A stretch of DNA of 64,000 nucleotides, taken from contig JAGTXO010000018.1 in NCBI GenBank assembly GCA_019448385.1, positions 186,001 through 250,000 of the forward strand. Reading direction: 5' to 3'. The notes under the pieces are model-generated. The model saw only the letters and a program-made list of their open reading frames with translations. It was not told where the DNA came from and made no database searches. Position numbers and translations under genes: made by a program. Source of the DNA: Diacronema lutheri (taxonomy: Eukaryota > Haptophyta > Pavlovophyceae > Pavlovales > Pavlovaceae). This document shows, piece after piece, positions 29,956 to 52,183 of the stretch. Each line of letters starts with the position of its first letter. The stretch's first letter is position 1.

Positions 29956-30416
29956 TAATGAAAGGAAAGGTGGAGGATGCTGGGAAACTCGAAGGCCGAG
30001 CCCCTTTGCGTATAGATGGTCAAGCCAAATCCGATCAGGGGCACGATCGAGCGCCCCGAGTGCAGCGCGGGCCATTCGGAAGGACGTCCTTGTGAGGGAG
30101 CTCTTCGCGTTTGGCGAGCGGGGGAGCACGACGCGCAGCGTTGCTGCGGCGGCGTGCGGGCGGCGAGCAGCGGTCGGGCTGCTCGCGACGAGGCCGGAGC
30201 AGACGGCGCCGTGGCCGCCGGCGCAGGTGACGCGCGCCGACGAGCCGTAGCGAGCGTCCGTGATCCGCACGGCGGTTGGAGCGGGCCGGCTGGTGCGGCG
30301 CGCTCGGCCACGGGTGGCGGCGTGCACGGGCGTGCCGAATGCGGTACGCGTCGCCAGCCGCGCGCGACCTGGGCAGAGCCCGCAAAGCGTCGACCGCTGC
30401 GCGGCTCGGCCGTGCG
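29956..30416 (-). other. stretch downstream of the Fanzor stop; candidate guide-RNA region
   Basis: This is the 3' side of the Fanzor reading frame. In TnpB/Fanzor loci the omega-RNA usually overlaps or follows the 3' end of the nuclease gene and stops at the element end. Nothing here proves an RNA gene. The minus strand is open (roughly 165 codons from a TTG overlapping the Fanzor stop), but I recognise no family. An 18-mer AAGGCCGAGCCCCTTTGC at 29995 recurs next to the PIF1 remnant near 56186. Confidence 0.25.
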
Positions 30417-33400
30417 TCAACGCCGGCCGCGCTTCGGCCCGCGCGCGCTGCCGCCGCCGGCACTGGCGCTGGCAGCTCCGCGGGCGGGGGTGCGGGCGCG
30501 AGAGCCGCCGCCGCCACCGCCGCCGCGCCCGCCGCCGTCGTCGCCACCGCCGTCGCCGCCGCCGCCTCCCCCGCCGTCATCGTCGTCGTCGCCGCCGCCG
30601 CCTCCGTCGCCGTCGCCGTCGCCGTCGCCCTCGCCGCCGCCGCCGTCGCCGCTGCCGTCGTCGTCGTCGTCGTCGTCGCCCTCGTCGTCGCCCTCGTCGT
30701 CGCCGTCGCACTCGTCGTCGCAGTCGTCGCCCTCGCCGTGCACCATGCGCTCCTCACGCTCCCACACCTCGCCGCGCGCCCACCAGGCGAGCACGAGGGC
30801 AAAGCGCTCAGGCGTCGACGTGGTGTCGCGCCCGGCCGCGTGCGCCGCCATGTCGTGCACGTCGTAGAAGATGTTGCGCGCGGCGTTGTAGTCGCGGTGC
30901 ACGGGCTTCTTGCCGCCGTTGCACGCCGGGCAGATGACGAGCGCGTGCACCGTGCGCGTGCCGCCTTTTGCCACGGGCAGGCGCGGGTTCTGCGCGAGCT
31001 CCGCGCCGCAGCGCTGCAGCCTGCCGCCCTTGGCGAGCCGCGGCATCGAGCAGTGCATCGACGTGTACGGCTCGGGCACGAAGACGGCCGCGACGCCGCG
31101 CCGCCGCAGCTCGCGCAGCAGCCCCACCTGGAAGGCGGGCGGCGCGCCCTTGGGCTGCGCGCCCTTGTGGTCGCGCAGCCACTTGCCCACGCACACGAGC
31201 AGCCGGTCGTGCGTCACGCCGTCGACGCAGTGCGCCGCGATGAGCGCCTCGGCGACGCGCGCCGCGTTGGACCGCCCGCCGCTGTCGCGCCGCCAGCGCT
31301 CCTTCCGGCGCGCCGGCGCGTCGTACACGTGCTCGGCGGCGCGCTCGCGCACCCGCGCGCTCTCGCGGTGGAAGGCGATGTATTTGCCCGCGTCGAGCAC
31401 CTTGGCGCTGTGCGCCTCGCCAAGCCGCGCCTCGTCCGCCTCCACGCTGAACTCCTCGCCGCGCCCGTCCTTGCGCACGCGCCGCCGCGCCGCGTTGGTC
31501 TTGGCCGTCTCGCGCGCAAAGCCCGCGGCGCGCGCGCGCGCGCGCTGCGTGAACTGCCGCCAGACGGCCGCCCGCCCGACGTGCGCAGAGTAGGTGGTGA
31601 TGTTGCCCATGTTCGGGTCGGCCGCGACGACGACCGCCGCCTCGACGTCGATCGCCCGCCGCAGCTCGGAGCCGAGCGCGACGGCGATGCGCCCGTCCGG
31701 CCGGCGCCAGCGGTGCAGGACGCCCGAGCCGCCGGCCGGCGCCTGCGCCTTCGGCACGAGGACGGTCCCGACGGCGTGCACGGCGACGCCATCTGTCACC
31801 ACCGACTTGACGGGCTGCCGGCCCGGGAGCGGCACGCGCGGCAGCGGCGCGAGGCCAACCCACGAGCGCCGCGCGTGCCACGGCAGATCGGCCGGCGGCC
31901 GCTCGCGCCCGGCGTAGTCGAAGACGCGGTTGGAGATGTCGAAGCGCGTCGCGAAGACCGCGTACCTGACGCGCACGTCCGACATCGGCGGGGTGAGGCC
32001 GTTTGTGCCTGTCCACTTGATCGGCTCGCCGTCGTGGTCGCGCAGGTCCAGCGCCTTGAGCCGCGCGCGCAGCTCTTTGCGCTCGTCGTCCGGGAGCGTC
32101 TCCCAGATGGCGTTCGCGGTGAGGCGCACGTTGCGCGGCACCTGCGCGCAGCGCGCGGCGCGCGAGCGCGCGGGCGCGTGACCAACCTGGCCGCGAGGCG
32201 GCGCGCACGGCGGCGGCGCGCGCGCTTGGGCGCACGGTGGCGGCAGCGTCAGCCGCGCCTCGCGCGCACATTGTGCGTGCGCAGCGGCGCCACATTGTAC
32301 CGCGGCGGCCGTCCGGTCAGCTGCGTGTGGATGTGCGCGAGCCGGCAGAGCAGCGCCTGCCCCTCGGCCACGTGCTGCAGGTTGCGGATCTGCACGAGGA
32401 AGTAGCGCGTCGTGTGCCGGTCGTAGTTCCATTTTTTCGTGGGCGTGCACTTGTAGTCGATCTTGTGGAGGACCATGTCGGGCAGGTGGCGGTCGAGCGC
32501 GGCGGGGCAGCCGACGCGCGCGCCCTGCACGTCGCCGCGCAGCAGCCGCTCGCACAGCTCGCGCACGCGCGCGTTTCGCTGCATCTCGGGCAGCGCGACG
32601 AGCGCCTCGTCGCGCTCGACTGCCGCGCGGACGACGTCGCGGAGCAGCCCGTTCACGACGCGCGATGGGTGCATCAGGCACGCGGTGGACACCTGCGTCG
32701 CCTCCGCCTCGAGGATCTCCGCGAGGCCCACCGCGCAGACGGGCTGGACGCCCTCGGCCATCTCGCCGACGGCGCGCGCCGTCGCCGCCTTGGTCTGCGC
32801 GGCGGCTTGCTCGGCGGGCTTGCCTCGGGGCGCTGCACCGTACGTGCTCTCGTCCTTGTGCCAGCCGATGGCCGAGAAGATCGCACGGACGGTTCCCTTG
32901 TCCATCGTGGTCGACGTGTGCACGCTGGTCGACGGGCCGCCCGACGCCGCGCCGACGGCCTGCGCGCTCGCCACCTTGTTGATGACGCGGTACGCCTGTG
33001 TCGTGAGCCTGTGCACGGCCGCCGCGATGCGCCGCAGCTCCTTCCGCGCACCGGGCTGCGCCGTCACCGCCTGCGGCCCCGCGTTGAGCGTCGAGCGCTT
33101 GACCACGAAGCCCAGGAGCACGCTGCCGCGCGTGCGCGCCGTCGCGCCGCCGGCGGCGCGCGCGCTCGGCGCAGCGGGCTCGTCCACGCGCGCGCGCTCG
33201 ACGCCGCGCGCGCGGGGAACGCTCGGCGCGCGCGCGCCCGCGGCGTCGCGCGCGCTCGCGGCGGCACCCGCCGCGGCGCGCTTGCCCGCGGCGCCCGACA
33301 CGCCGTGCGCGCGAAGCGGCGCCGACGCCAATGCCGACGCCGCGCCCGCGCCGCCGCTGCCGCTGCCCGATCCGCCCGCGCGCCGCTTCTGCTCGTCGCG

Positions 33401-35482
33401 CGTCTTGCGGAACTGGGCGACGAGGTCGCTGCTCACGTTGGCCTCAGGCTCCCACGTGTCGGCGCTCTCGTCGTAGCCCCGCCACCTGATCCGGAACTGG
33501 AACGTCACCTTCTTGCCCGCCTTGCGGCGCTCGTCGACGACCGCCTCGACCTCGTACGTGCGCGCCTCCTCGTCGACGCTCGCGCCCGCCGCGCTCGCGC
33601 CCGTGTCCGGCCACCCAGCGACCGTGCCGCCCAGCCTCTCGGCGGCCGCGCGCAGCTGCCGCTCGCGCTGGGCGGCCGCGGCGCCTCGCGCGACCAGCGC
33701 GGGCAGCATGCCCGCGCCGCCCGCGAGGCCGTGCGCGCCGACGCTGGCGGTCATCAGCGCGTCGAGGCACGCGAACGTTGCGAGCGCACGCGCGCCATCG
33801 TCGCCGCCGCGCGGCTGCGAGCGCACGACGGGCGATGGCCGCGGCTCCCCCTCGGCCGCGAGCAGCGGCCAGATCGCACTGGCCAGCGCGACGGCATGCG
33901 CGCCGACCGCGACGGCCACGTCCGCGTCGAGCGGCGCAAAGTCGTAGCGCACGAGCGCGGCCGGGCGCGAGTCGTCCGTCGGCCGGTCGGCGACGAGCAG
34001 CCCGACCGGGCGCGGCGGCTCGCCGGACGGCGCGGCGACGGGCACGCAGAGGAGCACGACGAGCAGGCGCGGCGTGCCGCCGAGCAGCGCGCGCGCGGCA
34101 TCCGCCCCGTCGGCTCCGCCGCGCGCGGCCGCGGCGAGCAGCTCGGCCGCGCGCGTCGGGCCCAGCGCCGTGCGCGCGTCCTTGCGCGCGCGTGCGCGCG
34201 CCGTGTACGCGGCGCAGGCGTCGTCGAGCACCGCCGCGCTGGGCGCGGTGCCAGTCGTCGCCCACGCGCGCAGCGCGTCGCGCACCCGCGTGACGATCGC
34301 CTGGTCGACCGCCGCCTCGCCGGCAGCGTGCGCCGGCGCGCACGCCGGCGGTGCGGCGGCAGGCGCGAGCGCGGGCGCGCCGTCGGCGCCGTCAACGCCG
34401 ACGGCGCCGTCGGCGCGCCGCCACGCGAGCTTCGCCTCGATCTGCTGCCGGACGGCGTGGCAGTGCCGATCGATGCCGCGCGCGTCGTCGAGCGCGGCCA
34501 GCGCGTCCTCAGCGGCGGGACGGCCGGTCGCGTCCGCGACGGCCTGCAGGCAGAGCAGCGCGGCCGCACGCGCGTTGCACGCGCTCTGCGGCTCGGGCGC
34601 GAGCGCGAGCTCGAGCTCGAGCGGCGACGCGCCTCGCGCCGCGGCGATCGCGTCCATCAGCACGTCCAACCGCTGCACCAGCGCCCTGTGCGCGTCGCGC
34701 GGCGCGCCCGTCGACGGCGCGCGCGAGCGCGTCGCCACGAGCCCGAGCGCGCGCGCCAGCGCGCCCGCCGGCGTGTGCAGCACGAGCAGCGCCGCGCCCG
34801 CCAAGCTCGCGTTGCGCGTGACGAGCGCGAAGATGCGCGTCGCCTCGTGCGCGCCCACCGACGCCCAGATCGCAGCGCGATCGGCGTCCGTCTGCGCGTC
34901 GCACAGGTCGCGCACGTCGTCCGGCGCGAGCAGCGCGCCGCCGCCGGCGGAGCGCGCGACGATCGCCCGCGCCTCCGCCACGAAGACGGCCTGCGGCAGG
35001 TCGGCGTGGCGCGCGTCGACGATGGCGCGCGTCGCGTGCACGCCGAGCTCCACGCCGCGGTAGAAGGCGCGCGCGTTGGCCGCGCGCGCGTGCGCCGGCC
35101 GTCCGTCCGCGTTGCGCCTCGCGCGCGCCTGCTTGCTCGTGCGCGCGAGGCCGTCGCGTGGCGGTGGCGGCAGCGTGGCGAGGAAGCGCGCGGTGGGCGG
35201 CGGCGCGCGCACGCCGCGCTGCCGCCGTGCGATGGCCGCGAGCCGCCGGCCCGCCGCGCTGCCGCCCGCGCCGACGTGCTGCCAGCGGTTGAGCGCCGCC
35301 GGTGGCGGCGGCGGCGGCGGCGCGGCGGCGGGCGGCGGCGCGACGGCGGGCGGCGGCGCGGCGGCGGGCGGCGGCGCGGCGGTGGGCGGCGGCGCGGCGG
35401 CGGGCGGCAGCGGCGGCGGCGCGGCGGCGACGGCAGCACCAGTCGGCTTGTCCGCCCACGCACCCGAGACGCTGTCCCAGGC
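30417..35482 (-). CDS. chromodomain-Fanzor fusion (eukaryotic TnpB-like RNA-guided nuclease)
   Basis: The model is complement of 35482..32270 and 32141..30417 with a 128-bp GT-AG intron in phase 0. The intron joins NVAPLRTHN to VPRNVRLTANAIW, restoring the typical Fanzor 'PLR...vPr.i.id' passage. RuvC-I is AADPNMGNITTYSA (Asp codon 31619-31617). The later core has VPEPYTSMHCS, a Cys-rich knuckle (RCGAEL, ICPACNGG) and RuvC-III HRDYNAARNIFY (Asp codon 30893-30891). The Glu in VPEPYTS may be the relocated catalytic Glu known in Fanzors. Upstream, at 33401..33560, is a chromodomain, TYEVEAVVDERRK through FRIRWRGYDESADTWEPE, with all cage aromatics. The C-terminus is an acidic Asp/Gly tail (30500-30740) and a basic end. 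No start ATG is evident near 35482, so this is probably the end of the giant reading frame upstream, or starts at an internal Met near 34657. Confidence 0.88.
35300..35425. repeat. 18-24 bp GC repeats coding for Pro/Ala linker
   Basis: About five imperfect copies of GCGGCGGGCGGCGGCGCG encode an AAAPPP linker on the minus strand just after the proposed 62-bp intron, at the start of the chromodomain-Fanzor part. Confidence 0.85.
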
Positions 35483-35544
35483 CTTGCCCGGTGGCGCGCG
35501 CCCACGCGGCCGCGGGTGGCGGGCCAGTCGAAGACAGGTGCAAC

Positions 35545-38500
35545 CGTGGCGGCAGGCGCCGAGTGCCGCGCGTCGGTCACAGAGCGCGTGGTGCGCGCGG
35601 CGACCGTGGCGCGCATGGCGGGCGGGCGGTGAGCAGCGCCCGCCGGCGCGCCGGCGGGCGCGGCAGCCGGCGCGCCGGCGGGCGCGGCCGCCTCGAGCCC
35701 GGCGGAGGCGCCGCGCTTGCGCTTGCGCGTGCCGCCGCGCGTGCGCCTGCGCGCGCGCCCGCCGCGCGCCCGTTCGGCCTGCGCGTCGCCAGCCGCGTCG
35801 CCGGCCGCGTCGCCGCGCCGCACGTAGACGACCGCGAACGCCTCCTCGCCGGTCCCGTCGACGCCGCCGCGCGCGCGGCGCAGGACCGACCGCCACTGCA
35901 GCCGCCGCGCGCGGCCGGGCTCGCACGCGAACCAGCGCCCACCGCGCCTGACGACGGCCACAAAGTCGTCGTCGCGCCGCCCGCGCCGGCGCGTGCGCAG
36001 CAGCACGCACTGCACGTCGAGCCAGCCCTCGTGCCATTTGGCCGTGCTGGGGGCGACGCGAATCGACTGCGGGAGCTCGACGCCAAAGCCGGCGAGGCGC
36101 ACGATGTGCGCGACGATGACGCTCGAAATGGCGGGGGCGCTCGACGGGTCGCCCGCTGCAGCGAGCCCCGCCCCGCCCCAGTGCTCACGCGTGACGCAAT
36201 CCGCGTCCTCGACGTGCACGTGCGCCACGCTCGCGCCGAGCTGGTGCAGCAACGCGCAGATGTCGGCGTCGACCGTCCTCTCCTCCTCGGCCGCCTCGGC
36301 CGTGCCGCGGGCGGCGGCGTCGCCCGCCGGCTGCCCGAGGTACGCGATCGCCCGCTCGACGGCCGCGCCCTCCGCACGCGCTGCGCTGGCGATCGCCGCA
36401 TTGCCGACGGGCGCGCGCAGCGCCGCGATCGCGTCTTGCAACGCCGTCGCGCCGCCCGTCGCCGCCGCCGCCGTCACCGCCGCCGCGCTCGCGGTGCCGT
36501 GCGCGACGGCGTGCAGCGCGGCGGCGCGCGCGGCGGGGATGCGCCCGTCCAGCGCGAGCACGAGAGGCGGCCCGGCCGGCGTCTGCTGCCGCCGGTGCCG
36601 CCGGCTCGCAGCCGGGTGGTCGGCGCGCGCGCGCTCGAGCCGCGCGCGCCGCTCGACGACGCGCGCCCAGAAGGCCTGCACCCTCGGCTGCGCGAATGCA
36701 AGCCAGCCGGCGCCGCGCGTCACGACGTGCACGACGATCCGGTCCTCGTGCCTGAGGTACTGCACGTAGAGCGCTTTGCGCACGCCGAGGACGTGCATGC
36801 CGAGCTGCAGCTGATCGCGGTGCGGCTGCGGCGGCCCGTCCTCGTGCGCCGTGGCGTCCGCCTTGGTGAGCGTCTTCACCTCGACGAGGACCTGCTCGTT
36901 GTTTTCGGGGAGGATGGCGAGCCCGTCCGGCGAGAAGGCGAACGGCGCGCTCTTGTCGTGCGGGTCCGCACGCACCATCGGCAGGTTGCACACGACGGTG
37001 ATGCCGTACGCGGCCGCCAGCTTGCGCAGCGCGACGGCCTCGCCGAGGATGCCCGCGGTCGTCGCCTTGGTCCGCACCTCGCGCCGCCGCCGGTGCACGT
37101 ACTCGTCGGTGAGCGTCTCGTGCGCGACGCCGGCGTTGTCGTTCACGACGTCGCCAACCTTGCTGCCCGTGACCTCCTCCCATCGCTCGTCGTGCCAGCG
37201 CGGGCTGCGCTGCGCGGGCGCGCCCGCGCCGACGGCGTCGAGCACGCGGCGCAGCGCTGTGCCGATGGGCGCAGGCACGCGCGCGCGGTCCTGGGCCTCG
37301 CGAGCGTCGAGGACGCAGCCCGTAGTGGAATCTTGGGGTAGGTCGAGCTTGCTCGCCTCGCCGTAGCGGCTCTCCAGCTGGCGCGGTGCGTCGGCAGGGC
37401 CGCCGTCCGTGCGCGCACCCGACGCGCCCGCCAGTGCACGGGGCGCAGCGTCCGAGGCGCCCGCCGCGCCCGCGCCGCCGCCAATCGCGCCAGCGCACGC
37501 GCGCGCCGCGACCTGCGGACGGCCAGCCGCAGGGACCTCGTCCGCTCGGCCGGCCGCTGCGTCGGCCGTCCGCTTGGCCACCTCGCGCACGTCTCCGAGC
37601 GCGAGCGTGGCTGGCGCCGTCGAGCTCCCGTGGCGTTTGTTCCAAAACTCGAGCAGCCCGCCAAGGAAGGGCGTGCCCGTCGGGCGGTCCTCGGGCACCT
37701 CCGCCAGGATCGCGTCGACGCGCAGCGCGGCCGCCACATCGCAAAACGCGCGCGCGGCGCGCGCCATCCGCTCGGCGCGCGCGCCGCCGTCGTCCGCCGC
37801 GCGGCGGATGGCGTGGCTCACGTGCGCGACGCGGAGCGAGACGACGGCGTGCGCCGGCGCGTCGGCGCCCGTGCCGAGCGTGTGCCGCCGGATGGCCAGC
37901 TGCCCATCGCCCATGCGCGGCGGCAGCGACGCGCACGCCGCGACGGTCGTCGTGCCGGCCGCGCTGTCGCACAGCCAGCTCGCCTCGCCGCCGCCCGCAA
38001 ACTCAAAGGTCGCGAAGCCCTCGCGGCCGAAAAGCGCGACGAAGTGGTCGAGCACCGCCTTGTTGATCGCGCGCGCCGCCGGCCGCGTCGATGCGCCGCG
38101 GGCAGCGCCACCCGCCGCGCCGCGCGCATCGCTGCACGTCGCAGGGCAGGTGCAGCCGGACGCGCGCACGCCGTCCGACCGCGTCCGCGGCAGCTCGAGC
38201 TCGCGCACCTTGGGGCAGAACCAGAGCGGGTTGGACGCCTCGAGGCACAGCACGACGAGCCGCCCGTCCGTGCCGGCCAGCGCGCGCGCGTCGCGCAGCA
38301 GCTCGACGGCGAGCTCGGACGTCGCCGCGTGCACCGCCGGCTCGCCCGTCGCGCGGTCGGGCGGGAAGAGGCCGCCGCCGACGAGCGGGCTGGGGCAGCG
38401 GCCGAGCATCACGAGCAGCGGCGGCGGCGGCGTCTGCGGCGCCTGCTGCCCGACCGCAGCCGCCGTCAGCCCGGCCAGGTCGGAGCTCGTGCGGAGGGCC

Positions 38501-40903
38501 TTGAGCGCGACGCGCGAGCCGGTGCCCGCCTGCTCGGAAAACGTGGCGAGCATGGCGCACGTGCTCGCCCTCGCGCCGCACTGCCAGCTGACGCGCGCGA
38601 GGAGGCCTTCCAGCGTGTCGTTTTCGCGCGGCCGCGTGACCGCGTCGAGCGCCGCCGGGCCGAGCTGGAGGCTGCCGGGCGTGACGCACAGCACCGCCTC
38701 GTGGTAGGCGCGCAGCAGCTCCCTCGGCAGCTGCTCGGCGGGCGTCGCCGCCTGCCCGCCCACCCACCATGCACCGTGGCCGCCGTCGCCCGCGCCCGCG
38801 AGCCGCACCGCCGGCCCGCCCGTGATCGCCGAGGTCGGCGGCGTGCCGAGCGCGTCGACGAGCGCGCGCACGGGCGCGACACGCCTGCGCGCAGCGTCCG
38901 CGCCGACGGCGAGCGCGGCGATCTGAGCGCCCTCCCATGCGCGCTCCCTCGCGTCGTCCCGCGCGGCCGCCGGCGCGGCGCCCGGCCGCGCGCCGGGCGG
39001 CACCGCGCACGCCGCCGCGACGACCTCCGCGCGCGCGCCGGCGGCGTCGGGCGCGTGCAGCTGCGCGATCGCGCCAAAGAGCGCGGCGGCCGAGCGGTAG
39101 CGGCCGTGCGCCGCGACGAGCGCGTAGAGCACGCGCAGCGCGGCCACGCCCGCCTGGTCGGGCGCGTCGTCAGCGATTTGCTCGACCTCCCACGTGCGCG
39201 TGGGCGGCGGGCTGCCGTCGGCCGGGTCCGGACGCAGCGCCCACGCGCGCTCGACGATCGCGTTGAACACGTCGCGCGCGGCGCCCTCGTCAAACTCGGC
39301 GGCGCCCGCCGCGTGCGCGCACCACCCGTGCACGCGCGACGTGGGCGCGTCCACGGCGCGCTGCACGACGAGCACCGCCGGCCGGTCGACGCAGCCGAGG
39401 CTCACCGCCGCGTGCTTGCCCTCGAGCAGCGCCGCCGCCGCAGCCTCGACCAAGGCGTCACCAGGCGCGTCGCCGACGACGACGGCACAGCCGTCGCCGT
39501 ACTCGGCCTGCATCGCGGCGACGCACGACGCGACAAAGTCGCCGCCCGCGGCCGCCGCGTGTCGCGCCGCCAGCATCCGGCGCGCGATGGCAAGCCAGAC
39601 GTACTCGGCCGGCGCGCGCGCGGCGCGCGCGCGAGGCGCGCCGGCCGCGCCGCGTGCGCCCGCGCGTGCGCCTCCAGCGGCCGCAACGGCCGAGGCGGCT
39701 GGAGCGGCGGTGAGCGTGCGCCGCGCGCGCTTCGCCGGCCGCGCGATGGGCGATGCACCCGCCATCGCACCGCCCGCAGCAGCCGGTGCGGCCGCCACAG
39801 CGCCCGCCGCAACGCCACTCGTCACGACGCCCGTGGCGGGCGGCGCGGCGTCGGACGCGGCCGCCTCGACGGGCGTCGCGCAACTACCGCCAGCGGTCGC
39901 GGACGCGCCCGGCGACGCGTCGGCGAGGAGGTGGCGCAGCACGCCGCGCGCGAGCGCGACTCGCACGGCGAGCGTCAGCGCGCGCAGGCGGTCGGAAGGC
40001 GAGGCGTCGCGCTCGGCGTCGGCGGACGTGGCGGCAGCAGGCGGGGCGGCGGGCGGCACGGCGGCGGACTGGGCGGCCGCCGGCGCAACCTCGTCGGCCT
40101 TGGCCAGCCAGACGAGCCCGGCGACTGCGAGCACGACGCTGTACGCGCCGACATCGTCACCCGCAACGCGCGCCAGCCGGGCGTGGGCGTCGGCCTCGGA
40201 CACGGCGACGTGGAAGAGCACGTCGTCGCGGGCAGCTTGCTCGGCAAACTGACGCAGCTGCTTGGCCATCGTCACGCCGGCGACGCACGCCTCGCCCGCC
40301 TCTGCCTCGACCTGCTCGTCCTGGCCGATGGCGGACGCGCCGGCCTCGGCGCCAGCGTCGAGTGTCCGGCGGCGCTCGAGGGCAAAGCCACGCACACAGA
40401 CGCTCTGGAGGCCGCCGAGCGCGCCCGCCTTCTCGTGCAGCGCGCACGACAGCTCGACCACCGAGTCCACGCGCCTCGCGGCGGCGCCCCCCCGCTCGCC
40501 GCGCGTGGCCGCGCGCACGACGAAGACCGTGAATTGCGCGCGCTTCGCCGCGCGCGCCGACGCGCACGCGTGCTTCAGGAGCCGGCAAAGCGCGGGCCTT
40601 TGCGCCGCTGCGCCCCGCGTGCACAGCAGCAGTTGGCCGCGCTCGTCGCCCAGCTCCTGCTCGACGGCGGCCTCGAGCGCGTCGTCCGTCAAATCGCCGT
40701 GCTCCGTCGAGGCGAGCGCGCGCGCAGCCGCGAGCGCCAGCTCGCCTGCGCCCGCGCGCCGCCGGCGGCGCGCACCGGCGGGCGCGTGCGGCGCCGACGC
40801 GTGTGACGACGCCGCCGCGTCCGCGCGCGCACACGCGGCGCGCAACGCCTCACGCGCCGAGGCGGCCGCGCGCGCCCTGGGCGCGAGCTTCAAGAACGTG
40901 CGC

Positions 40904-40989
<86 letters not shown>

Positions 40990-43900
40990 GGCCGGCGGCG
41001 GCGGTGGCGGCGGTGGCGGCGCGGCCACGGCGGCGGCAGCAGCGGCGGCGGCGGCGGTGGCGGCGGCGGCGGCGCCCAGCGCGGGCGGCGGCGGCGTGGC
41101 GGCGGCGGTGGCGGCGGCGGTGACGCCAGCGGCGGCCTTGGCGCCGCGCGTCTGCGGCGGCGTTTCGGCGCGATCGGGGCTGCCCCCGCCACGCACCGCG
41201 CTCGTGACCGCGCAGACGCCGCCCGGCGCACGATCGCTGGCCGCGCCGGTCAGCGCGACGCGGAGGCGCTCGCCGACAGCGTACATGTCCGCCACGCTGA
41301 ACGTGCGCGGCGCGGACGAGCAGCCCGCCGCGGCGAGCGCGTCGTTGAGCGCGCCCACTATCGCGAGGCCGCACGTCGCGCCACGCTGCGCCGCCTCGTT
41401 GAGCAGCAGCGCGCGGCGCACGCGCGAAATGTCGAGACCCGCCGCGTGCAGCGTGGCAGTTATCGCCTTGGCGAGCATGAGCGCCTGCCTGCAGGGCGAC
41501 GCGAGCGTGTCGACGAGCACCGCGTCGTAGCGATGCTCGCCCGCGCGCGCGACGCGCACAAGGCGCAACGCGGTGAAATGGCCGGAGGCGAGCTGCGCGC
41601 CGTCGTCACCGCCCGCGCCGCCGCGCTCGTCCGACGGGCTCCACACGCCGATGACAGCCTGCGTTGTCGCCTCGCTGCGCAGGCGGTGCAGCAGCGCGGC
41701 GCGCTCGGCGTCGTCCTGAAACACCGCGGGTTGCGCGGCGAGCGGCACGTGGCAGACATGCCCGCCGCCGGCCTGCCCGTGCACGCGCAGCACGACCTCG
41801 CAGCACGCGTCGACGGTTGAGGCGAGCATGTCGCCGCTGGCGATGCGCTCCACCTCTGCCTGCGGGAGGCCGGCGCTCGCGGCGGCGGCGGCCAGCCGGC
41901 GCGCAGCCGCGTCGCCCGCCCACGCAAGCAGCGCCGAGTTGGCGGGTTGGAGGGGAAGCTCAAGGGCGGCTGGTTCGGTGGCGGTAGCCTCGTTGGCAAC
42001 GGGCACGTTGGCGGTGCGCGCGTTGGCGGCGGGCGCGGCGGCGATGGCTGGTGGGGCGGAAGACGCGCCCGCGGCGGCAGGCGCGGACGCGGCAGCGGCA
42101 GCGGCTAGTGGGGCGGGGAAAACGCCGTCGGTGGCAGGCGCGGAGGCGAATGCAGGAGCAACTAGTGGGGCGGGAAAATCGGCGGCAGGCGCGAAGGCGG
42201 ATGCAGCAGCGGCTAGTGCGGCGGGGAAAACACCGTCGGCGGCAGGCGCGAAGGCGGATGCAGGAGCGCCAAGCGGGGCGCAGAAAACACCGTCGGCGGC
42301 AGGCGCGAAGGCGACAGCAGCAGCGGCCAGTGGAGCGGAGGCGCAGGGCCACGCGCGCGCCAGCCGTGCAAGCCCAAGCCGCGCGCGAGCGACGCACGCG
42401 CCGATGGCCGAGGCGGCGGCGCAGGCCACGACGTGGCCTGGCACCGGTGTGGCCAGCCGCTCGCGGGTGTGCACGTCGAGCCGCGCCCCACGCCAAGAGC
42501 GGCGGCGCGCTGAACGGAGGCGCGCGACCCCGATCGATCCGCCCGCGCACGCGCGCGCCGGCTCAGTGTGGCCAACGCGCGCCGCTATGCAAGGCGCGCG
42601 CGCGATAACGGCGGCTGTCGGCCGTGGCGTGCGCGTGGCGGCGCCGCGGCGACGGGCGCGGCACACGAGCCGCTCGGGCGCGCCGCCGCCGCGCGGCACG
42701 ATGTCGAGCAGCACGGTCACGCCGCGCGCGCGCGCGACCGCCGTGCACGCGAGCCGCACGGGCAGCGGCGGCCCGTCCGGGCGCGCGAGCGCCGCCACCT
42801 CGGCGTCGGTGAGGCTGTGCAGCTCGCGGCGCGCGCGCGCGAACGCGGCGATGTCCGCGCGCAGCTCCGCGTCCGTGCCGAGCGCGGCACGCGCGTGCAC
42901 GGGGAGCGACGCGCGCAGCGCGTGGAGCACGCCGCCGCGCGCGCCGCGCGGCGCCGGCGCGCGCTCGCGCTCAGCGCGCGCGGCGCGCGTGAGCTCGCGC
43001 ACCGCGCGCGCGAGATTGCGCCGCGCGGCCGCGACGGGAGGGCTAGGTGCGCGCGCGCGCCGGTTGTAGCGCGGCCGCGCCGAGTCGAGGGGCGGCGGAC
43101 GCGGTGCGTACGCCGCGGCGCGGCCCGCGCGCCAAAAGGCCGGCGGCGGGCGCAGCTCCGTCGCGTCGACCGCGGCCGCGAGCGCGCCGAGCGCGGCGTC
43201 GCTGTCGCCCGCCGCGTCGGCCGCGTCGACGAGCACGAAGAGCGCGCCGAGCGCGCGCGACGCGGCCGCCTGCGCGGCGGTGGGGCGGGCGCAGGCAGCG
43301 ACGCATGCGGCCGCCATGCCGCGCGCCGCGGCGAACGCCGGTGACGTGACGGCCGCGCCGATGGCAACGGCGGCGGCGGCGACGGTGGAGGCGGCAGCGC
43401 CGGCGATGGAGGTGGCAGCGGCGGCGGCGCTTGCCATCGCGCGGCGCGCGAGACGCGAGGCGCCACCGACCGCCGCCGCCGCAGCGCGCGCTGCGCGCGC
43501 GCCGGTGGCGCGCATCGTCGCCGCGCCAGGCGCCGCCGCGCCGACGCCGCCGGCGCCCGCGCCGTCGCCGCTCTCGGCCGTGCAGGGCTCCGATGGCGAA
43601 CCCGGCGTGCGCTGGCGCGTGATGCGCGCGCCGAGGCGCGCGCTCCGCGCCGCGCGGCCGGCGACGTCGAGGAAGCGCCGTGCGCGCGCCGCGCGCAGGC
43701 CACGCGCGCGCGGCGGCGCACCGACAGGCGCCGAGCGCCGCGGCGCGCACGCCGGCGCGTCGCTGTCGGGTTGCGCAGCGCGCGCGCGGGAACTCGGCGC
43801 GGCGTGTGCGGGCGGCGGGCGCGCGCCCGCGCGGCGCAGAGGCGCGAGGCGCCGGCCGCAGACGAGGCGTGTGCGCAACCAGGACGGCGAGGGCCGCAGG

Positions 43901-46900
43901 GCGCCGTCGACGTCGCGCATCGGCGGGCCGCGAGCCCGCCGCGCAGCCGTGCGGCGCGCGCGAGGCGCTCGGCGGCGCGCGCGCCGCACGGCGCGCGCGG
44001 CGGCGCGCACGCCAGCGACGGCTGCGGCCACGCCGCGCGCCAACACGGCCGCGGCGTGCGCCATCGCACCGAGCACGGCGCGTGGCGCGCCGAGCAAGCG
44101 CAGCAAGCGCGACGCCGTCGCGCGCGCCGGCGCACCGTGTGCAGGGGCCTCGCCAGCGCCAGCACCGACGCCGCCATCGCCGCAGCCGCAGGTGGCGTCG
44201 CCGCCGCCGCAGGCGTCGCGACGGACGCCGCCGCCGCCGAAACAACCGCCGCACACGTCGCCGCCGACGTTGCCACCCCAGCCGCCGTTGCGTGCGCAGG
44301 TGGCTGCGGCGCGTGCGTGCGGGAGGCGTGCCGTGCGGCGCGCATCACACGGGCTGCGCGACGCGAGCGACGCCGCCGGGGTCCCCGCTGCGCCAGGCGC
44401 GCCGTGCGCGCCAGCCTCGCCGGCCTCGCCGGCGCGCGGTCGCGCGCTCGCCTCGACGTGGCCGCCTCCGCCGCCATCGCCGCCGTCGAACCGGGCGGCG
44501 GAGGGCTGCCGCTCGAACCGCTCGTCGGCGTCGGCCGCCACCGCCGCCTCGCGCTCCGCCGCCGCGGCGGCCGCACGGCGCGCGTGGCGGAGCGCGCGGC
44601 CGCCGTCCGCTGCGCGGCGTGGCGGCGCGGGCGCGGGCTTCGGCGCGCGCGGCCCCTCGGCGCGCTCGCGGAGCACGGCGAGCGGCGTGCCCGTGGCGAC
44701 GCTCGTGCAGACGCGCCGCAAGGCGGCGCTTACGCACGCGTGGACGACGCGCGCCGTCCGCTTGTCGGCGGCGCGCGCGGCGCGGCGCGCGGCCTTGGCG
44801 GCGGCCTTTTTGGCGCGCCTCTGCTCCGCCTGCTCCGACAGCGCGCGCGCCTGGCGCTCGGCTGCGAGCGCGTCCTCGGGCGAAACGGTCGGCCTCGGCG
44901 GCCGCGCGCGCGCGCTGCGACGCTGCGCGCTGCGGCGGTCGGACGGCGGCTGCCGCGGCGGCGAGGACGGCGAGCGCGAGCTCGGCGTGGGCGACCAATC
45001 GCCGCTGACGGTTGCGAGCGGCGCAAACGGGTTGTCGTCCCCGCGACCCGCGGCGTGCGACAGTGCACGCGGCGTCGGGCGCCGGCCGACCGCTGGCGGG
45101 CCCCACTCGGACGGCGGCTCCGAGGGCGAGCGCGCCGTCGGCGCCGCGCGTTGCGCGGCCGGCGGCGCCTCCCGGTCCAGCGCCGCCTGCTCTCTCGCCG
45201 CGGCCTGCTCGTCACCCTCCGGCACGCCACGCGGCGCGAGCACCGCGGTGGCGCAGCGCGTCGCGTTGAGCAACGCCGCCTCCATCTGCCGCACGCTGGC
45301 CTTGGCGCACGCCACACCCTGTCTCGCCCGGCGCAGCGCCTCGTGCGCGCGGCGCACATCCGCGTCGGCATCTTCGCGCATGCCAAAGTGCGCCTGTTGC
45401 AGCCGCAGGTCCGCAGGGCGCCCCTGCGCGCGAGGGGCACGGGCGCGGCGGCGCGCAGGTGACGGAGCTGGCGCGCCGTTCTGCGCTGCGCGCACGCCAA
45501 TCGACGGGCGCGCGCGCGGCGGGGCGCGCGCGCGCGCGCGCGCGCGCGCGCTGCCTACCCAGCCGCCGGCCGGCTCGCGCGAGCGCGCCAGCTGCTCCGC
45601 CGCCTCGGCGTCGAGCACGCGCTGCTGCGCCTCCTCCTCGCCCAGTGCAGCGAGGTGCAGCCGGCGGGCTGCCTTGCGGCAGTTGCCCTCCGCCTTGCCC
45701 ACGGCCTTGCGCGCCGCGTCGACGGGGTCGTCGTTGGCTCTGGCGCGCCTGCGCTTGCCCTTGTCGGCGGGCGGCGGCTTGGCGCGCTGCAGCGTGCCGA
45801 GCGCGTCGTCGGCTCCGCGCGCGGCCGCCCGCGGGCGGCGGGCCCCAAAAAGCGCACCGGTCGCCGTGCGCGCCGCGCAAGCAACGACCAGCGCTGACAT
45901 GCCGGCGAAGACCGCACCGCCCAGCGCCACGGTTGCCACGATGCGCAGCGTCCCGTGCGCAAGCCGCGCTGCCTCCGCCGCTTTGGCGGCCTCGCGCGCG
46001 CGCGCATCGGCGGCTCTCATCTCGTGCAGCAGCCCGGCCGCGCCGCTCGCGCCGTCGCGGCCGCGCGCGAGCTCGCACAGCACCGCCGCCGCGCGCCGCG
46101 TGGGCTCGCGCGCGAGCAGCTGCGCGCCGCCGTCGGGGCGCAGCTTCTCAACGAACTCGACAAACGTCGCGTCGCGCCAGAGGGACATGCGGAAGGCCCT
46201 GTGCACCGCCCCCTCCTGCTCGCGCATCCGCCGTGCCGCCCGCCTGCCGTCGCGCGCGTGCGCGTGCGCGGCCGCGTCGAATCCCGCGACGCCGCGCTGC
46301 GCGTCGCGCGCGGCCGACGACGGCGCCGCCGCGCTGCCCGCCAAGGGCGCCGCAGCGGCGACGCGCGCGTGCGGAGCGACGGGATCGCCGGCGGCCGGCG
46401 GCTCGGCGCGCTGCGGCGTGCCGTTTGCTCCGCGCGCGGCCGTCCCGGGGGAGATGGCCGCGATGGCGCCGCCAGCCGCGCCGCGCGCCAGCCACGCGCA
46501 TAGGCTGCCGACGAGCTCGCCGAGACCCCCGACGGTCGCCGCGGCGGCGAGTGCGCCGGGCTTGCCGGCCGACAGCGGCTCGCGAGCGTCGTCGTCGCAG
46601 CCGCCGGCACCCGTCTTGGCGAGTGCGTCGCGCTCGCCCTCGACGCCCGCCACGACCGCCGCCCCTCCGTCGTCCGCCGCGCCGGCCGCGCGCGCGGCCG
46701 GGCGCAGAGGAGGCGTGCCGGTGCAGCCGTCGCCGCTCGTCTTCGCCGTTTCCTCCACTTTGGTCACTTCGTCGCCACCTGCGCCATCTCCGACGCCGGG
46801 GCCCTTGGTCACGCTTGCCGCCATGCGCGCCGTGCCCGCCGGCCAGCCCGCCGACTGCTCGAGCGCGGCGGCGAGCGGCGCGACGCGCGTCGACTCGGGC

Positions 46901-49233
46901 GCGCTCTCGTCATCGGGCTCGAGCGCGTTGTGCAGGCGCGCGAGCGCGCGCTCGACGGCCGCGGCGCCACTGCCGGGGGCGCGGCTCGCCGCGCGCACCG
47001 CGCGCCGCCAGGCCGGCGCGAACATGAGCGCCGGCTCGAGCGCCGCGAGCGCGCGCGCCTCGCGCGCGTCGCTCGCGCCGAGGCGCGGCGGCACGCGCGC
47101 GGCTCCGCGCGGCGCGGTGCCTCGGAAGCGTGGGCTCAGCGTGTAGGCGAGGTGCTGCGGCACGCCGCGCGCCTCCGCGCGCGCGCGTCCGTCCTCGACC
47201 TCGCGCCGCGCCTTCGCGATCGCCGGCGTGGCGCGCGCGAGCCAGTCGGGGTCGGCGGGCAGGTGGATCACGACGAGAATCGGCGCCCAGTCCAGCCGCG
47301 GGTTCTTGTGACGGTCGGGCACGACCCACACGAGCAGCACCGTGCCCTCCGCGCCGCACGCCGCCTCGTAGATCCTGGGCTGCGAGCGCCAATCGGGCCT
47401 GACGCGCAGCGCCCGCGCGTGGTCGATGGCGGCGGCGCGGTCGCCATTGAAGTGAACCGTCGTCACCTCGCCGATGACGGACCGGCCGGACCGCCAGCAG
47501 AACACCGCGTCCGCCGACCCGCCGGCGATGGCCGCGAGCGATTCGGGCGCGGCGAGCCGCGGCAAGCCCTCGAAGGCGGCAAAGTCCTCGTGCGCATTGT
47601 ACACGCCGCCCCAGCCGTCGTGCGCGTACGCGCGCGCGGCCGCTCGTACCGCGCGCGGCTGGTTCTCCACGCCCGACGTCATGTGCCATGTCGTCCCCGC
47701 GAAGCCGGGCTCGCCCAGCTCGGCCCGCACGACGGTACCGTACCCCGCGCCCTGCGTCGGGGCGGCGAGGTGGTGCATGCCCGCGCCGGTCACGCCCTCC
47801 GTGCGCTGCCGCGTGACGATCGTGCCCGTCGCGTGCGCGAAAAGCGTGTCGACCACGGCGGGCGCGCGCCCGCTGTTCGCCCGTAGCCGCGCCCTGCCCG
47901 CTTTTAGCTGCTCGGGGTCCTTGGCGTCGTACACGCGCGCGTCCGCGTCGCCCTCATCAGGCGCAGTGTAGACGCAGCGGCGTTCGAGCGGCGCCGAGCC
48001 ACCGCCGTCCGCCGCCGCCGGCGAGGTTGGCGCCGCGCCCGCCGCCACCGCGCTCGTCGCCGCCGTGCCCGTCGCCACCGCCGCAGCCGCCGCGCCCGCG
48101 GGGTCGTCGTCCCCGTCCTCCGCGCCCTCCCCGTCGTCAGCGGTGGTGGCGTCGCCATCGTCCCCGTCGCCCTCGCCCCCGCCGAGGCTGCTGAATGGTC
48201 GGGGCCCCCACGCCGAGGCGGCGCGCCGCTGCGGCGCACGCGGCGGTGGCGCTCGCGACGGCGGCCTTGGCGCCGCCGCGCCGCGCGGCCTGGCCGCCGT
48301 CGACAGCGCGCGGCCTGCAGCGCCCGTGAGCGCGTCGAGCGCGGCCGTGCGTGCGATGCGGTCGTCGGGCGCGCGCAGCGCCGCCTCGACGGCCTGCAGC
48401 AGCCCGTCGGGCGCGGATCCGCCGACACTGGCATCGCACGCCTCGGCGAGCCGCGCGGCCTCGGCGAGCCGCGCGGCCTCGCGGGTGAACGGGCCGAAGC
48501 GCCTGGCGCGGTCGCCGAGCAGAGCGCCGATGGCGGCGCGGAGCGTGCGCGCGCGGGTCTCCTCGTACGCGGCCGTCGTGAGGCGCGCGAGGCGCGCGTC
48601 CAAAGCCTTCTTGATGTCGACAAGGACACTCGCGCGGCGGCCGTAGAGCGTCGATGCGCTCGCCACGACCTCGGCCGCGACTGTTGCCGCGGCGAAGCAA
48701 CACGCGGCCCCACTCTGCGGGGGCGCCTTGAAGGCATCGATGGGCGGCGCTGTTCTGCCGATGCGCTGCGCAAGCTTCTTGATGAGCACGCCGGCCGCCG
48801 TGGCGTACGCCGATTCGCCGTTGCCCAAGGTGCGCGAATCGGCGAGCAGGGCGAGCGCGGCGCCGGGCGGCGCGCCGCGCTGCGCGGGCGGCGCGAGGAG
48901 CAGGTACGCCGCCGTCCAGTGCACGAGGCCGCTGGACGCGCGGAGGCAGAGCGGTAGCACGACCACGAGCACCTGCCCAAACCGGTCCGCATCCGCGCAT
49001 GCTTTGCGCAGGTTGCGCAGCGCCACCTTGAGCGCATGCTGCGAGCACCCCGTGTCGCCCACCCTAACCCTGCTCGTGCCGAAATCCGCGTAACGCAGCA
49101 GGGCGATGAGGCAAGTGGATGGGACCACGTGGGGGTGGGTATCTCCCGGCGACAGAATGGTGCTGAGGGCCAGCGAGAAACTGTCCGAGCCGCCCCGCCC
49201 GCCGGGCAAAGCGTCCTTCACGGAGTCCTCCAT
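35545..49233 (-). CDS. giant mobile-element polyprotein: two Ulp1-like proteases and a YqaJ nuclease
   Basis: An uninterrupted frame of 4,563 codons from ATG 49233. Residues 95-185 form a Ulp1/adenain-type (C48) protease: His105 in LVHW, Asp132 in ALLADSR, Gln173 and Cys179 in PPQSGAACC. One strong hydrophobic segment, LRIVATVALGGAVFAGMSAL, lies near 45.9 kb. A second C48-like domain has His near 2552 (SGHFTALRL), Asp near 2575 (VLVDTL) and Cys near 2621 (AQRGATCGLAIV). Residues of about 4000-4190 are a YqaJ/lambda-exonuclease nuclease with SPRWHDERWEEVTGSKVG, FSPDGLAIL and VLVEVKTL (the PD...ExK core), then QLQLGMHVLG. A basic KRKRG follows. Long Ala, Pro and Arg tracts link the domains. A 62-bp GT-AG intron (35544..35483, phase 0) would join it to the chromodomain-Fanzor. 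Family of the whole element unknown. Confidence 0.78.
40899..40986. repeat. GCG/GCC trinucleotide repeat coding for poly-Ala
   Basis: Nearly thirty perfect GGC-type triplets, read as about 28 Ala residues on the minus strand, lie between a degenerate and an intact Ulp1-like region of the giant frame. A Gly/Ala/Pro-rich continuation runs to 41130. Confidence 0.95.
42060..42340. repeat. about 57-bp degenerate tandem repeat in the giant frame
   Basis: About five units encode variants of SAFAPAADGVFPAPLAAAA on the minus strand, upstream of the second Ulp1-like domain. The frame is kept in all units, which supports the reading frame being translated. Confidence 0.85.
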
Positions 49234-51135
49234 CTGCAGACTGTGGGCACGTCAGTGTCCGGATGGCGGCCCGGATGATACTTGGGAGAATTTACATGAT
49301 GCCCTGGAGAATGCCCCGCTCTCCCACAACCAGGACCCGCCAGCGCGCCGAGCCTACTCGTTTGCCCGCGCCGCCTCTCTTTGCGCGCCCGAGCGCGGCC
49401 TCCGAGCGCGGCCAACGTCCTCCGGGGGCGTGCATCGTGGCTGCTCGGAGGGGCTGCGACGCGGCGAAAGCTCGCTGCGCGGCCGCAACGTGAGCGCGCG
49501 CGCGCGGCCGCGCGCCGGCCTGCGCTGCTCTGCACGGCCGCGCGCCGGCCTGCGCAGCCTCGTCGCGCAGCGTGAGCGCGAGCGCGCGCGAGGTGAGCTC
49601 GGCGGATGGGTGCGCGGCGGCGTTGGCGGCGGGTGCGGCGGCAGGCTGGGCGGCGGGTTTGGACGGAGAGTGTCGGGGAAGAACGGGGCGCATCCTGGCT
49701 GGGAGTTGGACGGCGCCCACCACGCGCTGGCGGATCCTGGTTGCCACCACCACCCCCCCCCCCCCCCGGAGACGAGGACCAGGGGCATGGCCGACTCGCT
49801 GCGCCGCACAGCGCGCGGCGCGCGGCATGCTGCGCGACCTCAAGCACATCCAGCCGCGCTCCGCCCACGCAACGCGCGCAATGCCGCGTTGCACTGCAGG
49901 TGTGCACGTGCGGCTCTCACGCGCACTGTGTTGCACGAACGGCATCACGCCACCGAGCTGCGTCCGGACCACGCGCCGCGCGCAGGCGACCACACAGGGG
50001 CGCGCCGCGCCGCGCGTGCGCGCCCTCGCAACCGTTGCAGCACGCTCTGCCTTGCACTGCGCCGAGCCGCCGCGCGCTGTGCGCGTGCATGCAGGGCGCA
50101 CGCGTGCGACGAAGCGCGCGCGCGGCGAGGCGCGCGGGCGGCTCGCTGCGCGGGCGGCAACGCGCCCAGCTGCGCCCAGGCCAGGCGCGCGCCCGCGAGT
50201 GCCACCGGGACGCACTGCCCCCGCCGGGGTCGCCGCGCGCTCTGTGTGTGCGCTCGCGCGCTGCGAGCGCGGCGGAACGTTCGTGCATGGCGCGAAGAGC
50301 GCGGCACCCGAAGACGGCTGCCCCGAGCCCGCGCCGGGTGGCAGCGAGCGGCGGCACCTCCTCGGCGAGCCCGCCCCGCGCCTTCCCCTCCACGTGGCGT
50401 TTTGAGGCAGACGGACACGCGCCCACACTGCGACTGGGCACGCTGCTCGAGGCAGACACGCACCCAACGCGCGCGCACCACGCGCCCGCGTCGGCGGGCC
50501 GGTGTGAACGAGCGAGAGCTCGGTGTCGCCAACGGGGGCACGGGCGCGACTTCGGTCCGCCTCTCGACGGACGCAGGCGACGCTGCCGGGAACTTCCCCG
50601 ACGCCTGCACATCCAGGGCTTCGAGGTACAGAGCTGGGCAACAGTGCCGCTCGTCACCGATGAGGCGGCCAAGCTCGCTATCCTTGCTGCCCTCGGCTCC
50701 ACCAAACAGCCGGGCGACCCAACGGTTCGTGATCGCCTGGCCGCCAGGTGCGAACCGCGCCCGTGCAAGCGCTTCACCCGCATTCTCCGCCCCGCTGCGG
50801 ACGTCCGCCTGCCGGCCGCGAACACGGCCGGTGCGCGTTGCCGCCTGGCCCAACACGAAAACCCGCCCGCCCCCGAGGCCGCAGGTCCTACCTGCCCAAG
50901 CGCAGCCCAACGGCACGCAGACAGCCCGCCTTGGCAACCGACTCGTGCGCGAGCGCTCCGCCCTCCACAAGAGCCTGCCCCACGCCACCGCCGACGCGGA
51001 GCCAGCGCAGCCGACGCCCCTCCGCGACGCTCGCGCCGCAAGGCGCAAGGGCCCCGGCGAGACGGCGTCAACCAAGCCCGCCGCTGGCACAGCGCCGGCA
51101 CCCGGAGCCCACCCCAAGCCCCCGCGCACGCCTCG

Positions 51136-51165: not shown

Positions 51166-51166
<1 letters not shown>

Positions 51167-52152: not shown

Positions 52153-52183
<31 letters not shown>

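What the first reader, a model, noticed from the sequence alone, without database searches (positions are those of the whole stretch)
30417..49233. Giant reading frame ending in a chromodomain-Fanzor fusion
About 18.8 kb on one strand can be read as one product of 6,208 residues if two small phase-0 introns (35544..35483 and 32269..32142) are removed. Domain order: Ulp1-like protease, long Ala/Arg-rich region with one hydrophobic segment, second Ulp1-like protease, YqaJ-type exonuclease, chromodomain, Fanzor nuclease. The frame has almost no introns, while all host genes around it have many. Fanzors are known from several transposon families, but I know of none described with this set of partners in one polyprotein. 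I infer a large mobile element whose RNA-guided nuclease is physically tied to a histone-mark reader, an exonuclease and its own processing or deSUMOylating proteases.
Basis: partly seen in the sequence, partly recalled or inferred. Interest (0 to 1): 0.95.

Follow-up and report, generated by a model that had tools for sequence, protein, structure and literature searches.

The report
Giant algal transposon with chromodomain-Fanzor protein
A 26-kb stretch of a marine alga's genome is a shortened copy of a giant, recently multiplied jumping element whose largest gene ends in an RNA-guided DNA-cutting enzyme joined to a chromatin-reading domain, a combination we found no report of.

Summary
On the minus strand, 49233-30417 reads as 6,208 codons once two GT-AG introns are removed, and codon-position GC switches frame where they sit. 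Chromodomain, Fanzor (with the relocated catalytic Glu) and a YqaJ/RecE exonuclease are supported. The two Ulp1-like proteases are not: only an H-D-C spacing is visible. A USP-type deubiquitinase and a PIF1 helicase were missed.

The stretch is part of a larger element. The window copy spans 30010-56184 and is 5'-truncated, with a 19-bp target duplication; complete copies are about 31.05 kb. The host assembly, matching Diacronema lutheri, holds 220 3' ends and 192 5' ends. Ends are fixed and read S-TATA|TA[G/C]GG...CCATC-TATA|C; none of 11 end-to-end copies has a longer duplication at its ends. The helicase shares 128 bp at 92% with the genome's lone detected Helitron Rep locus, yet no Rep, integrase or recombinase was recognised in the element.

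Best reading: a young, giant, Helitron2-like, Fanzor-bearing DNA transposon whose mobilising enzyme is unknown. RNA-guided homing into empty S-TATA-C sites and chromatin targeting are inferences. New variant of a known kind; one continuous protein is probable, not shown.

The parts
30010..56184 (-). 5'-truncated copy of the giant element, 26.2 kb (complete copies about 31.05 kb)
   Evidence: Sharp junctions against other copies at 30010 and 56184; complete copies run on to a 5' terminus, e.g. C13:388418
29991..30009 (.). target-site duplication, element 3' side (19 bp)
   Evidence: 19-bp exact repeat flanking the copy
56190..56208 (.). target-site duplication, truncated 5' side, separated from the element by 5 bp of filler
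55190..56184 (-). 3' part of PIF1-type helicase gene, cut by the truncation
   Evidence: Complete in L040: PF05970 1.2e-11 and 4.9e-24, Pif1 2B 2.7e-13
53126..53392 (-). USP-type ubiquitin carboxyl-terminal hydrolase domain, best-matching stretch (a weaker C-terminal match reaches about 52691)
   Evidence: PF00443 E 6.7e-10; PF13423 E 0.22
30417..49233 (-). 6,208-codon reading frame, exons 49233-35545, 35482-32270, 32141-30417
35483..35544 (-). proposed intron 1 (GT-AG, 62 nt)
   Evidence: frame switch in codon-position GC
32142..32269 (-). proposed intron 2 (GT-AG, 128 nt)
   Evidence: frame switch in codon-position GC
48697..48921 (-). first Ulp1-like H-D-C spacing (no profile support)
41368..41580 (-). 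second Ulp1-like H-D-C spacing (no profile support)
36646..37218 (-). YqaJ/RecE-type exonuclease domain
   Evidence: PHROG 434 RecE-like 6e-17; PF09588 E 0.002, below its cut-off
33404..33556 (-). chromodomain, HP1/CDY-like
   Evidence: PF00385 1.6e-12; 47 PDB sequences at E<=0.001
30870..31109 (-). Fanzor TNB/zinc-finger and C-terminal RuvC part; motifs DPN, E-before-finger and HRD start at 31619, 31073 and 30899
   Evidence: PF07282 2.4e-6; motif positions
30010..30416 (-). 407-nt 3' non-coding stretch between Fanzor stop and 3' terminus; candidate omega-RNA region (inferred)
   Evidence: No Rfam match above gathering score; RNA fold z -1.25, not significant

Best explanation
The window holds a 5'-truncated copy of a giant (about 31 kb), recently amplified DNA transposon of the alga Diacronema lutheri, best described as a Helitron2-like, Fanzor1-bearing element. 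Shown: fixed ends; end-to-end copies at S-TATA|C without a longer duplication; a truncated copy with a 19-bp duplication; a PIF1 helicase gene that shares sequence with a resident Helitron; a frame ending RecE/YqaJ exonuclease - chromodomain - Fanzor. Inferred: replication by helicase-driven single-strand copying (rolling-circle type), with nicking by a protein supplied in trans or not recognised here. Inferred: Fanzor, guided by RNA read from the element's 3' end into the flank, cuts the unoccupied S-TATA-C allele so that repair restores or copies the element, with S-TATA acting as target-adjacent motif. Inferred: the chromodomain holds the nuclease at H3K9/K27-methylated chromatin, and the exonuclease feeds recombination.
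For: Copies and ends: 220 3' ends and 192 5' ends at <=1 mismatch, reversed-pattern control 0. 36 pairs made from the 65 3' ends (exact matches) and 65 5' ends listed for contigs C1-C30 fall in classes near 31.05, 29.2, 26.3 and 21.6 kb. Junctions: 36 of 37 distinct 3' junctions read CTATA|C. All 100 5' ends listed (of 192) start with C (94) or G (6). The host motif AAGCGYCSTTA-(1-4 bases)-TATAC, which is not occupied at that point, occurs 84 times, control 0, and two copies sit in it at GTATA|. In 11 of 11 end-to-end copies no shared stretch abuts both junctions; the longest shared stretch is 4-8 bp, as in random cross-pairs (mean 5.5). The truncated window copy has 19 bp. This pattern is described for Fanzor1-carrying Helitron2 elements CRe-1,2,3 (PMC3627910, passages). 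Helicase: PIF1 with 2B domain; 128 bp at 92% identity to C63, about 1.7 kb downstream of the only Helitron Rep hit. Fanzor: ExxxxxxC relocated Glu and DPN motif, as in PMC10711439 (passages) and SpuFz1 D383/N385/E541, TAM CATA (PMC10432273, passages). Chromodomain. RecE-like.
Against: No Rep recognised in the element: Helitron_like_N rings once in the genome, on C63, where the frames are interrupted. A motif scan found 8 HxH strings, one of them (HCHAV, 34465) in the coding frame, without a Rep profile match. Asymmetric inverted repeats are not better than shuffles (455 of 2000); terminal hairpins are not significant (z -0.90 and -1.27). The link to the Helitron rests on 128 bp. The TATA at both ends fits a 4-bp duplication or a recombinase core as well. 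A second candidate truncated copy shows no duplicate of its 16-nt 3' flank. The helicase gene needs a frame change with no GT-AG intron that keeps its core. Codon changes between copies look near neutral in exons 1 and 2. No omega-RNA is demonstrated.
Confidence: 0.55

Rival explanations
1. A Crypton-like or other tyrosine-recombinase element moving as a circle; the TATA at both ends is the shared crossover core, and the Helitron-type helicase is cargo.
For: Short direct repeat (TATA) at both ends, no significant inverted repeats, site preference S-TATA-C. That Cryptons have short terminal direct repeats is recalled; a Fanzor in a possibly Crypton-related element is mentioned in PMC3627910 (passages).
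Against: No recombinase domain in the scanned frames. The truncated copy with a 19-bp duplication is not expected.
Confidence: 0.2
2. A cut-and-paste (DDE-type) transposon with a fixed 4-bp TATA duplication, its transposase unrecognised or supplied in trans.
For: S-TATA|element|TATA-C can be read as a 4-bp duplication.
Against: No DDE domain in the scanned frames; no significant inverted repeats; 5' truncation with a 19-bp duplication.
Confidence: 0.12
3. A LINE-like retroelement: intact 3' end, 5' truncation and a long target duplication reflect target-primed reverse transcription.
For: Window copy: intact 3' end, 5' truncation, 19-bp duplication, 5-bp filler.
Against: No reverse transcriptase in the scanned frames; end-to-end copies lack long duplications; the element carries a helicase; no tail at the 3' end.
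Confidence: 0.05
4. The giant frame is several adjacent genes, so that Fanzor (with or without chromodomain) is a separate protein.
For: No transcript evidence. A database protein, P0004, starts at a methionine near the start of the Fanzor exon, though that may be only an automatic call. Long open frames are common at 78-84% GC. One deleted copy has frame-breaking indels.
Against: Codon signal is continuous and changes frame only at the two GT-AG introns; few indels, mostly in frame, in the parts compared. Chromodomain and Fanzor are separated by intron 2 only.
Confidence: 0.35

Closest known systems
Helitron2 Fanzor1 elements CRe-1,2,3 of Chlamydomonas reinhardtii (Bao and Jurka 2013, PMC3627910, passages read)
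   Same: Fanzor1 carried by an algal element; 3' ends more numerous than 5' ends; a 5'-truncated copy with long duplication and short filler; end-to-end copies without it
   Different: 31 kb; carries its own helicase, USP and exonuclease; Fanzor in frame with a chromodomain; target S-TATA|C, not TTTT|; terminal repeats and hairpins not significant here
Fanzor1 nucleases such as SpuFz1 (Saito 2023, PMC10432273, passages read)
   Same: D-x-N in RuvC1 and a catalytic Glu and Asp; TAM CATA resembles the TATA at the insertion site
   Different: Preceded in frame by a chromodomain and thousands of residues; zinc finger interrupted (C-x13-C); function not tested
Helitron RepHel transposases
   Same: PIF1 helicase with 2B domain; 128 bp at 92% identity about 1.7 kb downstream of a Rep hit on C63
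   Different: Upstream of the helicase the element has a conserved 245-aa domain of unknown function and no recognised Rep
Chromodomain-bearing LTR retrotransposons (mentioned in PMC6338049, passages read) and adintovirus integrases (PMC11071296, passages read)
   Same: A chromodomain in a mobile element's enzyme
   Different: There with an integrase (for LTR elements recalled); here before an RNA-guided nuclease, and no reverse transcriptase or integrase was recognised

Membership tests
Fanzor1 | D-X(125-275)-[TS][TS]xx-C4 finger-X(5-50)-RD motif | tested here: met
   Pattern match ending in the HRD region, residue 6049 on (finger spacing allowed loosely); PF07282 E 2.4e-6
Fanzor1 | Relocated catalytic Glu six residues before first finger Cys | tested here: met
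   EPYTSMHC at residue 5991; criterion from PMC10711439 (passages)
Fanzor1 | DPG in RuvC1 (usual in Fanzors; not taken as defining) | tested here: not met
   Reads DPN; the proven Fanzor1 SpuFz1 has D383 and N385 at the active site
Fanzor1 | Binds RNA from its 3' end and cuts DNA next to a TAM | not testable with these tools
   Needs biochemistry; RNA fold z -1.25 only
Helitron (RepHel) | HUH Rep domain | tested here: not met
   One Rep profile hit in the genome, on C63; protein search found no second copy. Not filed as a Helitron for this reason
Helitron (RepHel) | PIF1/Pif1_2B helicase | tested here: met
Helitron1 | 5' TC, 3' CTRR, insertion A|T (ends from PMC3627910; target recalled) | tested here: not met
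   Ends TA[G/C]GG and CTATA, target S-TATA|C
Helitron2 | Asymmetric terminal inverted repeats | tested here: inconclusive
   GCGCGGTCCG/GCGCGGGCCG, 455 of 2000 shuffles as good
Helitron2 | Hairpins near both ends | tested here: inconclusive
   z -0.90 and -1.27
Helitron2 (CRe type) | No duplication in end-to-end copies, long duplication in truncated ones | tested here: inconclusive
   0 of 11 end-to-end copies; 19 bp in the one truncated copy read at both ends; a second candidate gave no 16-nt match
Crypton | Tyrosine recombinase | tested here: not met
   No match in the scanned frames; sense frames of the first 3.3 kb and divergent enzymes could be missed
Polinton / polinton-like virus | Capsid and packaging genes (recalled) | tested here: not met
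   None among Pfam matches of the scanned frames
Peptidase C48 (Ulp1) | Profile match | tested here: not met
   No match at E<=10 for either region
Peptidase C48 (Ulp1) | H-D-C catalytic order (recalled) | tested here: inconclusive
   Spacing pattern at 105-179 and 2552-2622; no meaningful alignment between the two regions
YqaJ/RecE exonuclease | Profile match and SPDG...VEVK order (motif recalled) | tested here: met
   PHROG 434 6e-17; motifs at 4101 and 4117; Pfam below cut-off; no PDB match at E<=1
Chromodomain | Profile match with aromatic cage Y-W-Y | tested here: met
   PF00385 1.6e-12, PDB alignment; cage assignment is recalled knowledge

The most novel reading that the evidence does not exclude
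A new kind of eukaryotic giant mobile element without a conventional transposase. A chromatin-reading, RNA-guided nuclease cuts empty S-TATA-C sites, the fused RecE-type exonuclease processes the ends, and the element's Helitron-derived helicase copies it in: RNA-guided, chromatin-addressed homing as the main route of spread.
Probability: 0.12. Interest if true: 0.95.

Novelty: new variant of a known kind. Interest (0 to 1): 0.72.

Why it matters
Fanzors are studied as genome editors, but what they do for their transposons in eukaryotes is, to my knowledge, unsettled. Here a Fanzor lies in frame with a methyl-histone reader and a recombination exonuclease, in an element with about 200 copies, precise ends and a target motif (S-TATA) resembling a known Fanzor TAM. 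That makes the idea that Fanzor cuts the empty site directly testable. It would also be a natural precedent for a chromatin-addressed RNA-guided nuclease. The element alone may make up roughly a tenth of this genome (my extrapolation: 192 5' ends times the mean 27.3 kb of the 36 paired copies, about 5 Mb of 43.5 Mb; an upper-side estimate, since unpaired ends may belong to shorter copies).

Tried and rejected
Ulp1 proteases: no Pfam match, no C48 match in the PDB for the first, no meaningful similarity between the two; a fold of the first could not be started.

Viral origin: scans of viral contigs with the helicase N-terminal region, its alignment, the Fanzor piece P0004 and the USP region found no relative.

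Relatives among about 5.8 billion proteins: for residues 1-4500 of the giant frame none at E<=0.001 among 1,292 scored candidates. One 97% piece for Fanzor. For the helicase's first 385 residues, one identical protein and five 246-252 aa proteins at 53-73%. Fold of the N-terminal domain: mean pLDDT 42.5, unusable.

Telomere-capping idea: of contig starts picked by hand from the capped list, 12 lie near the element's 3' end and 4 near its 5' end, and TTAGGG arrays exist; read as assembly breaks.

Empty site for one pair of flanks: no match. Second duplication test: negative. Splice search in the helicase gene: no GT-AG intron keeps the helicase core in frame; GC-AG options exist, unresolved. 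C8:156095 was dropped from the duplication test because its 3' flank is missing (contig end).


Full report
Host. The window is G000:C33:186001-250000 of an assembly with 43,492,796 bases in 103 contigs. Diacronema lutheri is reported with 43,502,671 bp, 103 contigs, longest contig 3.042 Mb and an 852.26 kb contig statistic (PMC8379373, passages). Here C9 has 3,042,068 bases and C11 852,258. The species name is therefore inferred from assembly statistics.

Reading frame. The minus strand carries a 4,858-aa frame 49233-34657. Removing two GT-AG stretches gives 6,208 codons. Codon-position GC shows a coding signal starting at about 49233, with frame switches near 35.5 and 32.2 kb. Indels against other copies are rare in the coding parts compared: one of 3 bp in 7 copies at 45.9-49.2 kb; a 21-bp difference in 7 of 7 copies and a 6-bp one in 2 of 11 in the coding part of 30.4-33.4 kb. 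One internally deleted copy, L017, has 8-bp and 2-bp deletions at 45.5-46.0 kb that break the frame. In 49300-55850 there are 56 gap observations, 11 of them multiples of 3 (many shared or slippage). The middle of the frame (about 33.4-44.7 kb) was not fetched from other copies. Changed codons between copies are 6-8 synonymous to 6-8 non-synonymous in the last exon, but 1-2 to 7-8 in the compared part of exon 2 and 0-5 to 1-19 in the first part of exon 1, so purifying selection is not shown for the whole frame.

Domains. Chromodomain, Fanzor and RecE/YqaJ exonuclease are supported. Two Ulp1-like stretches show only an H-D-C spacing without profile support. Most of the rest of the frame was scanned in pieces and gave no Pfam match at E<=1. 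Outside the frame, a USP-type deubiquitinase domain lies at 53392-53126 (weak C-terminal match to 52691), and the 3' part of a PIF1 helicase gene at 56184-55190 (helicase scored on L040).

Element. Copies share a sharp 3' boundary at window 30010. The window copy ends at 56184, while others go on to a 5' terminus found by comparing L049, L013 and L019. The genome has 220 3' ends and 192 5' ends (control 0). Pairing the 65 and 65 ends listed for contigs C1-C30 gave 36 pairs: 13 at 31.02-31.08 kb, 10 at 21.4-21.6 kb, 5 at 29.1-29.4 kb, 3 at 26.3-26.5 kb, 5 others; 29 ends of each kind stayed unpaired, in part because the lists are capped. Shorter classes keep both ends, which suggests that they are mobilised in trans. 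In the C71 copy, for example, 46837-54552 is replaced by about 2 kb. The 3' 3.4 kb of seven copies is 98.1-98.3% identical to the window, and 5' stretches of nine copies (L032-L040) are 99.7-99.8% identical to L031, so much of the spread is recent; other copies are 85-98% identical in parts (L013, L017, L019, L023, L030), so more than one subfamily exists.

Junctions. 36 of 37 distinct 3' junctions read CTATA|C. Of 20 distinct 5' junctions 14 have C and 6 have G before TATA; four of the six G cases were picked because they had G. In one search's listing, 94 of 100 have C and 6 have G. In 11 of 11 end-to-end copies no shared stretch abuts both junctions (longest shared stretch 4-8 bp, random cross-pairs mean 5.5); the truncated window copy has 19 bp plus 5 bp of filler. 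The host motif AAGCGYCSTTA-(1-4 bases)-TATAC occurs 84 times (control 0; the pattern itself demanded TATAC; GTATAC and GTATATAC are the common forms, and one match, on C46, abuts a copy). Copies at C4:196673-227728 and C27:48018 sit in that motif with GTATA on the 5' side. I read the target as S-TATA|C. The same letters could be written as a 4-bp TATA duplication or as a recombinase core.

Helitron link. PF14214 rings once, at C63:35738-36019, and a protein search found no second copy (one chance-level hit at E 0.2). Its frames are interrupted. 128 bp at 92% identity, about 1.7 kb downstream of that Rep hit, match the element; the match begins at about residue 247 of its helicase protein, where the conserved 245-aa domain (alignment A1) ends. 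I infer that the helicase half descends from a Rep-helicase in which Rep was exchanged for the 245-aa domain. No Rep, DDE, tyrosine recombinase or reverse transcriptase was recognised in the scanned frames; sense frames of the first 3.3 kb of complete copies were not scanned. One HxH string lies in the coding frame at 34465, without a Rep match. The enzyme that moves the element is unknown.

Mechanism. Truncated copies with a long duplication beside end-to-end copies without one, in a Fanzor1 element of an alga, is what Bao and Jurka describe for Helitron2 (PMC3627910, passages); here one truncated copy shows it and a second candidate does not. I therefore favour helicase-driven replicative DNA transposition with a nicking protein in trans. 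SpuFz1 recognises 5'-CATA and has active-site residues D383, N385, E541, D606 (PMC10432273, passages). Here the Fanzor reads DPN, ExxxxxxC and HRD, and S-TATA lies directly 5' of the sequence that would serve as guide match in an empty site. Fanzor cutting of empty alleles is thus an attractive but untested step. The chromodomain resembles CDY/HP1 readers; targeting to methylated histone H3 is inferred.

Literature. The search for Fanzor, transposon and chromodomain (838 papers with two of three terms, 25 listed) put three papers with all terms first; passages of these three describe no such fusion. Fanzor alone gave 82 papers, 40 listed; four or more of Helitron, ubiquitin, Ulp1, transposon, PIF1 and chromodomain gave 23, 10 listed. 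No listed title or abstract start describes the fusion; most of these papers were not opened, and the library lacks most subscription journals.

Verdict. It is a new variant of a known kind: an unusually large, young, Fanzor-bearing, Helitron2-like element with a chromodomain-Fanzor frame.

Noticed in passing
L049:8723-9591 (C13, inside the element's 5' part): Inverted repeat (about 91% over 870 bp) with GGGTGTAGGG-type sequence, partly shared by other copies: probably a nested foldback or MITE-like insertion.
   Followed up: partly
G000 contig ends, e.g. C1, C5, C6, C8, C12, C14, C43, C71: Several contigs end exactly at the element's 3' terminus and a few near its 5' terminus: the element is probably a main cause of breaks in this assembly.
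   Followed up: partly
G000:C63:35001-38000 (L088): The only Helitron Rep gene detected in the genome, with interrupted frames.
   Followed up: partly
P0006-P0010: A conserved 245-aa protein family (54-74% identical to the element's helicase N-terminal domain) occurs as stand-alone proteins in public sequence sets; no Pfam family above cut-off, function unknown.
   Followed up: partly
84 places in G000: Dispersed host motif AAGCGYCSTTA-(1-4)-TATAC, used as an insertion site by some copies.
   Followed up: partly
G000:C82:890200-890277 (L094): Two 5' termini 53 bp apart: a short 5' fragment of one copy directly before another 5' end.
   Followed up: no
L071 and L081 (3' flanks of copies at C9:2938841 and C3:177854): In both, CTAT[A/G]TA[C/G]GG, similar to the element's own 5' end, begins 8 bases after CTATA; possibly related families inserted side by side.
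   Followed up: no
L049:7000-8440 minus strand: Open frames antisense in the element's 5' part with some codon-position bias; no Pfam match. May be an additional small gene.
   Followed up: partly
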